Position numbers and translations under genes: made by a program. Shown one piece after another: positions 51,339 through 53,608 of a stretch of 64,000 nucleotides of DNA (position 1 is its first letter; every line of letters begins with the position of its first letter). The notes below the pieces were generated by a model that worked only from the letters and a program-made list of their open reading frames with translations, was not told the DNA's origin and did no database searches. The stretch comes from Candidatus Latescibacterota bacterium (GTDB lineage Bacteria; Latescibacterota; UBA2968). Location: assembly GCA_022823725.1 (NCBI GenBank), contig JAJEHL010000026.1:620001-684000 (forward strand), read 5' to 3'.

Positions 51339-51363
51339 AAAACATATCTAATCTGTGTATAAT
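51335..51363 (+). promoter_or_regulatory. Promoter of rlmH, probably leaderless
   Basis: TTGTAA (51335-51340), a 17-base spacer and TATAAT (51358-51363). The -10 box includes the first in-frame ATG (51362), and transcription should start at about 51370, i.e. at the second ATG (51371). Confidence 0.65.
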
Positions 51364-51370
51364 GGCAAAT

Positions 51371-51841
51371 ATGAAGATCACTTTGCTCACTGTGGGTAAG
51401 TTCAAAGACGCGTGTTATCGAGATGCCGCACAAAATTATATCAAGCGGCTGCAACACTACGTCGCTTATGATGAGATTGAAGTGCGCGAAGAGCGCGCGA
51501 GTAAAAATGCCCGTGTGTCTGATATTATCGAGAAAGAAGGCCATCGCCTTTTAAGTGCGCTGCATCCAGATGCCACTGTGGTTGCTCTTGGGCCTTCTGG
51601 CAAATTGTGTCGTTCTGAAGCCTTAGCCAAACGTTTGAACCATCTGCGCGTACAAAAAAAAAGCCGCCTCGTTTTTCTCATTGGCGGCCCTTTTGGGCTT
51701 GCATCTCGAGTTTTGTCGTGTGCAGATTGGCATTTGTCACTTTCACCTATGACTTTCCCACACGAATTGGCGCGTGTGATTTTGCTGGAGCAACTCTATC
51801 GCGCTTTCACGATTATCAGAGGTGAAAATTATCACAAGTAA
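51371..51841 (+). CDS. rlmH: 23S rRNA pseudouridine-1915 N3-methyltransferase RlmH
   Basis: 156 residues from the ATG at 51371. This start is favoured because the -10 box overlaps the ATG at 51362; known members are about 155 long. MKITLLTVGKFK opens it. ALGPSGKLCRSEALA, FLIGGPFGL and SLSPMTFPHELARVILLEQ form the SPOUT knot and SAM site, and it ends YRAFTIIRGENYHK. It methylates pseudouridine 1915 in helix 69 on assembled 70S ribosomes. No ribosome site; the transcript is likely leaderless. Divergent from the S55 gene. Confidence 0.93.
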   Translation: MKITLLTVGKFKDACYRDAAQNYIKRLQHYVAYDEIEVREERASKNARVSDIIEKEGHRLLSALHPDATVVALGPSGKLCRSEALAKRLNHLRVQKKSRLVFLIGGPFGLASRVLSCADWHLSLSPMTFPHELARVILLEQLYRAFTIIRGENYHK

Positions 51842-51844
51842 AAA

Positions 51845-51945
51845 AGCGGTAAGAGGTGAGATGCAAAAGAGCCTGCCCCGTAGGGTGTAATACGGGGTAA
51901 GAGGACTACCTAACCCCTCTCACGTCTTTCGTCTCACGTCTTTAA
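51845..51945. repeat. GAGACGTGAGA-type element, copy 2, with a GGGTGTAA-loop hairpin
   Basis: Contains CCCCGTA (51876-51882), loop GGGTGTAA and TACGGGG (51891-51897), a perfect 7-bp hairpin. The flanking segments GTAAGAGGTGAGATGC and CCTCTCACGTCTTTCGTC are the reverse complement of the element at 39446. It lies just after the rlmH stop. Confidence 0.6.
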
Positions 51946-51951
51946 AATTAG

Positions 51952-52036
51952 CTCGGGGGCAAACGACTCACATAGCCTGGGAGAGATGATTCTGCGGGAA
52001 TCCGGCTACGTTGAGTCAACTCGCCCCCGGGTTTTT
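51952..52036 (+). ncRNA. Long nested hairpin with T-run, candidate structured RNA or attenuator
   Basis: CTCGGGGGC (51952-51960) pairs with GCCCCCGGG (52023-52031, with one G-U pair on the plus strand and a mismatch on the minus). Inside it GACTCA (51965-51970) pairs with TGAGTC (52012-52017), TAGCC (51973-51977) with GGCTA (52004-52008), and GATTC (51988-51992) with GAATC (51998-52002). TTTTT follows directly. The long arms and internal loops are more elaborate than an ordinary terminator, though it may also end rlmH transcription. I could not match it to SRP RNA, 6S, tmRNA, RNase P or any riboswitch class I know. Confidence 0.5.
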
Positions 52037-52070
52037 AACATGTCAAAATCAAACAAGGGGTAAATCAGTA

Positions 52071-52187
52071 ATGGCGAGTCCGCTTATTCAGAGTACTGCT
52101 GTAGGAATTGAAATGGGGAGTTCAGATAAGCAATTCAACACTCAGATGACCGAGAAATCCGATGGGGAATCGGTGTCACCTGCTTGA
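52071..52187 (+). CDS. Unrecognised 38-residue ORF after the structured hairpin
   Basis: ATG at 52071, TGA at 52185, with AAGGGG about 10 bases upstream. The peptide begins MASPLIQSTAVGIEMG and ends DGESVSPA. It is polar, with no membrane segment, Cys or His. The same DNA can fold: GCTTAT (52082-52087) with ATAAGC (52125-52130), and CCGAT with ATCGG near 52158-52172, so it may instead be part of a structured RNA. It lies 35 bases beyond the T-run. From 52188 to 52303 I see nothing. Confidence 0.3.
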   Translation: MASPLIQSTAVGIEMGSSDKQFNTQMTEKSDGESVSPA

Positions 52188-52303
52188 TTCAGGGGGATTG
52201 ACGAGTCTTTACCACAAGAACGCGCTTAAGATAAGCCATTGTTTTTATTAAGTCAAGATTACTTTTTTGTTTTTTTGATATGCGCCAGATATTGTATATC
52301 ACA

Positions 52304-53608
52304 TCATTGTTTACCACAGCCCAATGTGGTTCTATTTTTAAATAATTGCGTGTACACGGCCGGTTCTTCAAAAATCCCTCCGCTTTGATCGTAGTAGTTC
52401 TCATCCAGCACATAAGCACCACCTCTGGGTCGCAACCACGATGCATTGGGCACGGGATATTCCGAGAGCATGTGATTCCAGGTGCCGTAATTTTCCGGGC
52501 CGTTGGATTCCATTAATCCCCCTTTCACTCCCGGAAATGCGGGCAATCGCGCAGCCACGTTTTTGTTCCATTCCACCAGCACGGGCACACACGCATTATC
52601 CGCTACAAAACACGGCACATTAGACAGTGTTGCCGCTTCGATCATGCGAAAAGCCAATGACAGGGTTTTACCCGCGGGTTTGATCGCCATAGCACCGTAT
52701 CCCTGCTCCAATCGGGTGTGTACATCTGCAACAGTTTCGATGCTTTCATCCCCTGCAAAACGCGCAGGTAAGCCGTGTACATCGATATCTGCTGGATGCA
52801 AAAAAGGTTCTTCAATCAGGACAATGCGATCCAGAATACCTTCTTTTTTGGCATGATCCAATAAGCGCGCCATGCTGTCTTTTTTGCCATACCGACCATT
52901 GGCATCGAGATAATAGAGCACATGGCCCGAATCGGTCATCTCCGTTTCATACTGAGATGCCAGATTGTGAATCTGCGACAGACAGGCCATGTCTTTTTCC
53001 ACCATTTCGGCTTCATCTCCCGGATGCCCAATTTTGATTTTTAGTATGTACGCTCCGCTATCTAATATTGCCCGCAATTCATCTATGGGCAGGGTATAAC
53101 TCACAGCAGGTACAAGCGCGACATGCGATTGACGATGGGATAAAAATGAGCGAAATTTTTCTGGGATTAAGGCGTCGAACGTCGCCAATCCCATCCGTTT
53201 TGCATGCAAGACCCATGCGGCGTTGTCCAGTGCTACCAGCGCAATCAGTGCAAATGTTCGGCGCAAATCCCCATGGCCTGTAATGGCTTTGGCATAAGAA
53301 AAGACATCGTTTTCAACGGTGTCAAATAATGCCATCGGGTCGGCAAATTCTTTTCCCTTGATCTGTTGCAGTGCAAATTCCAGAAGAGATGCTTGAAGCA
53401 AATTGCCGCCCATTTCTGTATGTGCAGCAAATACGGCAGCGTCTGACCACAGTACGGCCAAACCACCTATACCAAAAGCTTCATGTCCGTCGGCATCTTT
53501 TAAACGCACGATGAGATTCCACTTTTCGTGAAAAGCCGATCCCTTAAATGCAAAGGGCCGCGCGAATGGTTCGCGCTGAATTTCTAAATCTGTTTCGACA
53601 ATGTTCAT
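52304..53608 (-). CDS. Enolase-superfamily (mandelate racemase / muconate lactonising type) enzyme
   Basis: 434 residues. K190-I-K192 is the KxK catalytic pair, D235, E266/E267 and D287 are in the metal-ligand positions, and K310 lies on the following strand (AMAIKPAGKT). The N-terminal capping domain covers about 1-140. The fold and ligand spacing are those of the MR/MLE subgroups, which abstract a proton next to a carboxylate (acid-sugar dehydration, racemisation or epimerisation). The exact substrate is not clear. The gene is convergent with rlmH and its ORF, with a possible barrel gene downstream of a terminator. Confidence 0.85.
   Translation of the reverse strand: MNIVETDLEIQREPFARPFAFKGSAFHEKWNLIVRLKDADGHEAFGIGGLAVLWSDAAVFAAHTEMGGNLLQASLLEFALQQIKGKEFADPMALFDTVENDVFSYAKAITGHGDLRRTFALIALVALDNAAWVLHAKRMGLATFDALIPEKFRSFLSHRQSHVALVPAVSYTLPIDELRAILDSGAYILKIKIGHPGDEAEMVEKDMACLSQIHNLASQYETEMTDSGHVLYYLDANGRYGKKDSMARLLDHAKKEGILDRIVLIEEPFLHPADIDVHGLPARFAGDESIETVADVHTRLEQGYGAMAIKPAGKTLSLAFRMIEAATLSNVPCFVADNACVPVLVEWNKNVAARLPAFPGVKGGLMESNGPENYGTWNHMLSEYPVPNASWLRPRGGAYVLDENYYDQSGGIFEEPAVYTQLFKNRTTLGCGKQ

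What the first reader, a model, noticed from the sequence alone, without database searches (positions are those of the whole stretch)
51952..52187. Unmatched structured RNA with an adjoining 38-codon ORF
In the only long gene-free stretch of the window there is an 85-base nested hairpin of at least four stacked helices. Its outer stem pairs fully only when read on the plus strand (a G-U pair there is a mismatch on the minus), and it ends in TTTTT. Thirty-five bases on, an ORF with its own ribosome site begins, and that DNA can also form a GCTTAT/ATAAGC-closed multibranch fold. A terminator does not need such long arms. It could be a trans-acting small RNA, a riboswitch-like attenuator before a small protein, or one larger structured RNA covering both. 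I know no family that fits.
Basis: partly seen in the sequence, partly recalled or inferred. Interest (0 to 1): 0.62.

Follow-up and report, generated by a model that had tools for sequence, protein, structure and literature searches.

The report
Order-wide Latescibacterota small RNA gene
The hairpin is the 3' end of a roughly 280-base small RNA gene that runs on the opposite strand from the one first proposed, matches no known RNA family, and is kept once per genome across a whole order of uncultured Latescibacterota, so it is probably a core regulatory RNA.

Summary
On the minus strand a sigma-70-type promoter (TTGACT-N17-TATCTT, 52256-52228) precedes a ~280-nt RNA whose 3' end is the reported hairpin (52034-51947). 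A covariance model of the hairpin finds one copy in 19 of 21 genomes of the order (in the other two the contig ends beside this locus) and none elsewhere in the phylum. All 19 have the same promoter with an almost fixed spacer; copies in the second family end in GGGCTTTTT, a minus-strand terminator. The 38-codon plus-strand ORF is not conserved. Rfam has no match; no 6S RNA was found. The RNA displays unpaired C-runs: a two-tier hairpin with an NCCCC loop and an AUCUCUCCC bulge. This genome's Shine-Dalgarno is AAAGGAGA, not GGGGA, so simple anti-SD pairing is unlikely. I favour a trans-acting sRNA that pairs with G-tracts (GsrN-like), with a protein decoy as rival. Four sister genomes carry the same promoter ahead of a secreted CARDB-protein gene whose leader also has C-loop hairpins. 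Expression, targets and function are untested.

The parts
52228..52256 (-). promoter: -35 TTGACT, 17-nt spacer TAATAAAAACAATGGCT, -10 TATCTT
   Evidence: Found by the consensus scan and present ahead of all 19 homologues. Only copy in G000 at up to 2 mismatches; reversed-pattern control gives 0 in G000.
51944..52221 (-). the small RNA, ~275-280 nt (start inferred ~7 nt after the -10, not mapped; end inferred from the terminator hairpin)
   Evidence: Conservation from promoter to hairpin; whole-RNA fold z -2.6 on minus against -1.1 on plus.
52186..52207 (-). hairpin H1, variable stem with a CCCCC loop in most f1 genomes (C-run ~52192-52196); stem poor in G000 itself
   Evidence: ACUCA/UGAGU, ACUCG/CGAGU, CAGUUGG/CCAACUG, GGAGAC/GUCUCC in different genomes.
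52143..52182 (-). hairpin H2, two-tier stem with loop UCCCC (52164-52168)
   Evidence: Present at about +54 in most homologues; inner stem CCGAU/AUCGG, UCGGU/AUUGA, CGAU/AUCG, GGCCG/CGGCC, CCGGU/ACCGG.
52114..52122 (-). single-stranded AACUCCCC element
   Evidence: Conserved in the genus, predicted mostly unpaired.
51947..52034 (-).
   Evidence: Covariance model R1: 19 of 21 genomes of the order. Terminator T-run on minus: GGGCTTTTT in family f2; weaker CTAATTTT here.
51362..51841 (+). rlmH (SPOUT methyltransferase), convergent neighbour
   Evidence: Pfam PF02590 E 3.5e-52; next to the RNA in 18 of 19 homologous loci.
52071..52187 (+).
   Evidence: Start codon, frame and stop not conserved.

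Best explanation
A stand-alone non-coding small RNA gene on the minus strand, ~280 nt, with its own sigma-70-type promoter and a terminal hairpin that doubles as terminator, probably in both directions because rlmH converges on it. Inferred mechanism: a trans-acting regulator that exposes several C-rich single-stranded elements (H1/H2 loops, CUCCCC linker, AUCUCUCCC bulge of H4) and uses them to pair with G-rich tracts of mRNAs, as GsrN of Caulobacter does with its C-rich loop. Shown computationally: gene boundaries on one strand, promoter, structure, order-wide single-copy conservation, lack of coding capacity. Inferred: that it is transcribed, that the C-rich elements are the active sites, and that the partners are mRNAs. 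My estimate is about 0.9 for 'independent ncRNA gene on minus' and about 0.45 for the pairing mechanism.
For: Promoter on minus in all 19 homologues at a consistent 240-310 nt from the hairpin's end, with spacer AAAACAATGGC almost fixed. One copy per genome in 19 of 21 genomes of the order; in the other two (G005, G010) the contig ends inside rlmH, at the edge of the locus. Hairpin: 30 pairs, 95% of cells paired against at most 47% when slid, 5 pairs changed on both sides against 1.2 in shuffles. G-U against A.C asymmetry favours minus. Minus-strand terminator T-runs in family f2. H2 keeps its shape and NCCCC loop while its stem letters change. No conserved ORF on either strand. No Rfam match. 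The upstream neighbour varies while the RNA stays, so it is not a leader of that gene. C-rich loops pairing with G-tracts of leaders are an established sRNA mode (GsrN, PMC5869019).
Against: No expression data. In the window's own genus the T-run after the hairpin on minus is short and displaced (CTGATTTT), so termination there may be inefficient. The structural statistics are modest (11-17 related sequences; the H2 alignment from MAFFT is imperfect for distant members; the pairing scheme was drawn on the minus fold). The 5' domain of G000 alone does not fold better than shuffles (z 0.14). The Shine-Dalgarno sequence of this genome is AAAGGAGA/AGGAGG; GGGGA occurs ahead of 0 of 231 starts, so the loops do not target generic ribosome sites. 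A search for the complement of the H4 bulge in 11 genomes gave no convincing shared 5' UTR target.
Confidence: 0.55

Rival explanations
1. Protein decoy: the RNA is a sponge. Its repeated NCCCC hairpins bind an RNA-binding protein and keep it away from mRNA leaders with the same hairpins, in the logic of CsrB/CsrA or CrcZ but with C-rich instead of GGA or A-rich sites.
For: Several similar C-loop hairpins in one RNA. In four sister genomes (G011-G014) the same promoter stands ahead of a secreted CARDB-protein gene, and the leaders also hold C-loop hairpins; the G014 leader has H1 and H2 in the same order and folds with z -4.2.
Against: The CARDB gene was not found in the window's genus apart from a weak match in G008, where the RNA is nevertheless conserved; no candidate protein identified; hairpin number is small (2-4).
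Confidence: 0.2
2. A 6S-type RNA: a mimic of an open promoter that binds RNA polymerase, standing in for the 6S RNA that is not found in this phylum.
For: Single copy, order-wide, housekeeping-like; no RF00013 match above cut-off in 64 genomes of the phylum, none at all in G000.
Against: No long rod with a central bubble closing the two ends; separate hairpins instead. The 6S model rings in only 4-5 of the 14 control genomes, so its silence is weak evidence of absence.
Confidence: 0.07
3. Only a bidirectional terminator between rlmH and a leftward transcription unit, the rest being an untranslated remnant.
For: The hairpin abuts the rlmH stop in several genomes and has T/A runs on both sides.
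Against: The apical arms and bulge are the most conserved letters, which a terminator does not need; promoter and 5' hairpins are conserved too; nothing is encoded between promoter and terminator.
Confidence: 0.06
4. One reading: a plus-strand RNA or attenuator followed by a 38-residue protein.
For: TTTTT after the hairpin on plus and a ribosome-site-like AAGGGG.
Against: ORF not conserved; no promoter found on plus by the scan; G-U asymmetry and promoter are on minus.
Confidence: 0.02

Closest known systems
GsrN of Caulobacter and GsrN-like sRNAs (PMC5869019)
   Same: Stand-alone sRNA with an exposed C-rich loop that is the best conserved part; clade-restricted.
   Different: GsrN homologues by sequence were limited to Caulobacteraceae; no sequence relation seen here; ours has several C-rich elements, and no target is known.
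Staphylococcal RNAIII and Rsa sRNAs (C-rich, UCCC loops; from general knowledge and PMC2837412, PMC9217828 by title and abstract)
   Same: Several hairpin loops expose C-runs.
   Different: Those loops match the ribosome sites of their hosts; here GGGGA is absent from ribosome sites. No Rfam match.
CsrB/CsrC/RsmZ and CrcZ decoy RNAs
   Same: Repeated small hairpin motifs in one RNA; possible shared motif in mRNA leaders.
   Different: No GGA or AANAA repeats noted; Rfam models for these do not match at threshold (the CrcZ hit is chance level, on the A-rich promoter).
6S RNA (RF00013)
   Same: Single-copy, conserved, similar size class.
   Different: Different secondary structure and no model match.

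Membership tests
trans-encoded bacterial sRNA (general kind) | own promoter and terminator in an intergenic region, no conserved ORF | tested here: met
   Promoter in 19 of 19, GGGCTTTTT terminator in family f2, weaker in the genus, no conserved ORF.
trans-encoded bacterial sRNA (general kind) | transcribed as a discrete RNA | not testable with these tools
   No RNA-seq available.
trans-encoded bacterial sRNA (general kind) | conserved base pairing with target mRNAs | tested here: inconclusive
   Complement of the H4 bulge searched in 11 genomes; no convincing shared leader site.
any Rfam family | covariance model score above gathering threshold | tested here: not met
6S RNA | RF00013 match / rod with central bubble | tested here: not met
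   separate hairpins.
RNAIII/Rsa-type anti-Shine-Dalgarno sRNA | loop complementary to the host's ribosome sites | tested here: not met
   GGGGA 0 of 231, GGGG 2% (control 4%); the H4 bulge's UCUCC does match GGAGA, 15% of sites.
Csr/CrcZ-type decoy | repeated protein-binding motif shared with regulated mRNA leaders | tested here: inconclusive
   C-loop hairpins shared with CARDB leaders in four sister genomes, gene essentially absent in the window's genus.
riboswitch/attenuator with small protein | conserved downstream coding sequence | tested here: not met
   ORF lost in relatives; the upstream gene varies and rlmH is convergent.

The most novel reading that the evidence does not exclude
The promoter with its fixed spacer plus C-loop hairpins is a regulatory module used both by this sRNA and, in sister genera, by the leader of a secreted CARDB-repeat gene: a previously undescribed post-transcriptional regulon in which an unknown protein or ligand reads NCCCC hairpins and the sRNA acts as decoy.
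Probability: 0.13. Interest if true: 0.68.

Novelty: new member of a known kind. Interest (0 to 1): 0.45.

Why it matters
It would be a core small RNA of an order in an uncultured phylum, unmatched in Rfam 15; my literature searches found no sRNA work on Latescibacterota, though they were keyword searches of open-access papers only. A promoter whose 17-nt spacer is nearly fixed across two families is unusual and suggests a dedicated regulator. The covariance model and promoter pattern make the gene easy to find in metatranscriptomes, so its expression can be tested without a culture.

Tried and rejected
(1) Rfam at gathering and at lax thresholds: nothing real. (2) tRNA/tmRNA: ARAGORN finds none in the window. 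(3) 6S RNA in the genome and phylum: one sub-threshold hit in a distant genome only. (4) Plus-strand peptide: rejected. (5) Minus-strand peptide starting at the ATG inside the promoter spacer (MAYL...): stops at once in G013, start lost in G019; by reading. (6) Other genes in G000 with the same promoter: 20 of the 34 near matches to the spacer were fetched; none of those displayed has a -35 at the right place. (7) Generic anti-Shine-Dalgarno model: loops do not match this genome's sites. (8) Targets of the H4 bulge: more near matches than the reversed-pattern control, but those inspected lie mostly inside frames or in repeats, none clearly at a start shared by genomes. (9) A divergent copy beside rlmH in family f4: other sequence follows rlmH, no promoter of this kind. 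(10) Promoter pattern in viral contigs: no match. (11) Literature searches: no Latescibacterota sRNA found.

Full report
OBSERVATION. The window lies in a Latescibacterota MAG genome (held as G000; relatives' record titles name the phylum). The reported hairpin is real at 51950-52034. It folds better than every shuffle on plus (-40.0 kcal/mol, z -3.7) and on minus (-40.6, z -4.8). The larger plus-strand fold including the ORF does not (z -0.96). Rfam gives nothing at threshold for the whole window and only chance-level hits at this locus.

WHICH STRAND. Homologues from 8 of 10 same-genus genomes and two further genera of the family, aligned on the minus strand, show a block with TTGACT, 17 nt, TATCTT at window 52256-52228, then conservation to the hairpin's end 240-310 nt on. 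The simple consensus scan picks this as the only promoter-like site in the region (1.2 expected by chance, so the scan alone proves nothing). In the hairpin, 41 cells are G-U on minus and 9 are A.C. The structure was drawn from the minus fold, which biases this count, so I lean on the promoter and terminator more.

HOW WIDESPREAD. A covariance model of the hairpin (R1) finds one copy in each of 19 genomes out of 21 in the order, at bits 46 to 112, and none in 26 other genomes of the class or 17 of the rest of the phylum (E-values are rough, stricter filters were used). The two missing genomes (G005, G010) have rlmH cut off by a contig end within its last codons, exactly where the RNA would follow, so absence there is an assembly gap. 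All 19 copies have the promoter on the same strand, found also by a promoter pattern with one match per genome in most cases and almost no control matches. The spacer letters AAAACA(A/T)(T/A)GGC are nearly fixed, which a plain sigma-70 promoter does not need. In the second family (f2) the hairpin is followed by GGGCTTTTT on the minus strand. In the window's genus it is CTGATTTT, a weaker terminator, and the plus side has the better T-run, so the hairpin probably terminates both rlmH and the RNA.

NEIGHBOURS. rlmH lies convergent, next to the RNA, in 18 of 19 loci, with a SpoIVB-like S55 peptidase gene beyond it; in G019 rlmH is missing but the S55 gene is there. The gene upstream of the promoter differs between genera; in the window it is a 434-residue protein without a Pfam match at 0.001. 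The RNA is therefore not the leader of either neighbour. In family f4, other sequence follows rlmH and there is no promoter of this kind.

STRUCTURE. From 5' to 3': H1, a variable hairpin often with CCCCC in its loop; H2, a two-tier hairpin with an NCCCC loop about 54 nt from the start; a linker with CUCCCC; H4, the terminal hairpin, whose apical GCCGGAUUC...GAAUCAUCUCUCCC(A/C)GGCUGU is almost invariant. Pair counts: H4 95% of cells paired, 5 pairs changed on both sides (shuffles 1.2); H2 inner stem 72% against at most 40% slid, 4 pairs changed on both sides (shuffles 2.2), on an imperfect alignment. H2 stems read CCGAU/AUCGG, UCGGU/AUUGA, CGAU/AUCG, GGCCG/CGGCC, CCGGU/ACCGG in different genera. 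The 5' domain folds significantly in some genomes (z -3.5, -2.6, -2.2) but not in G000 itself (z 0.14) or G020 (-0.28). C-runs are more frequent than in shuffles (4.4 against 2.5 per RNA), but their mean unpairedness is not clearly above shuffles (0.73 against 0.70); it is the H2 loop that is reliably open.

NOT CODING. The plus-strand ORF loses its ATG in 5 of 8 genus relatives and breaks in frame in all. No ORF is shared on the minus strand.

FUNCTION. 'Independent ncRNA gene on minus' I hold at about 0.9. For mechanism, the exposed C-runs suggest pairing with G-tracts. A first version of that idea, anti-Shine-Dalgarno loops as in RNAIII, fails a direct test: ahead of 231 starts in 464 kb of this genome the ribosome site is AAAGGAGA/AGGAGG, and GGGGA is never seen (starts were called by a simple first-ATG rule on long ORFs). 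GsrN shows that C-rich loops can instead bind G-tracts in leaders (PMC5869019), and I keep that as the favourite at about 0.45. A target search with the H4 bulge was inconclusive.

SHARED MODULE. In G013 and G014 the promoter recurs with 0-1 mismatch ahead of a secreted CARDB-repeat gene (Pfam PF07705), and in G011 and G012 with weaker forms. Their leaders hold C-loop hairpins; in G014 both H1- and H2-like hairpins lie inside a closing stem followed by TTTTT (z -4.2). This is the most novel lead: a shared promoter is well supported, a shared hairpin code is only suggestive. The CARDB gene was not found in the window's genus except for a weak match in G008, so it cannot be the RNA's only purpose.

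VERDICT. Real, ordinary in kind (a new lineage-specific sRNA family), unusual in its fixed promoter and order-wide single-copy conservation; strand and boundaries corrected.

Noticed in passing
L082 (G014), L083 (G013), L084 (G011), L111 (G012): The sRNA's promoter, spacer included, recurs ahead of genes for secreted CARDB-repeat proteins with long structured leaders; the G014 leader is a three-way junction followed by TTTTT and could be an attenuator.
   Followed up: partly
window 51843-51945: About 100 bases between rlmH and the RNA (GGTAAGAGGACTACCTAACCCCTCTCACGTCTTTCGTCTCACGTC) look like a repeat: 42 bases of it match at 81-88% at three other places in the genome (L002-L004), and a copy sits at the same place in G007 but not in most relatives.
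   Followed up: no
window 52270-52330 (upstream of the promoter): A block ATACACAATATCTGGCGCATA some 20-40 nt upstream of the -35, and CACATTGGGCTGTGG further up, are conserved in the genus; possible activator site or terminator of the upstream gene.
   Followed up: no
L164, L167, L173 (G010, G006, G001): GGCGGGATAGATGATTCCAGATCACACAGA recurs after a CCCGCCC-type hairpin in several genus genomes; looks like a repeat element.
   Followed up: no
G005:C385 and G010:C119: Both assemblies break within the last codons of rlmH, right beside the RNA gene, perhaps because of its very stable hairpin.
   Followed up: no
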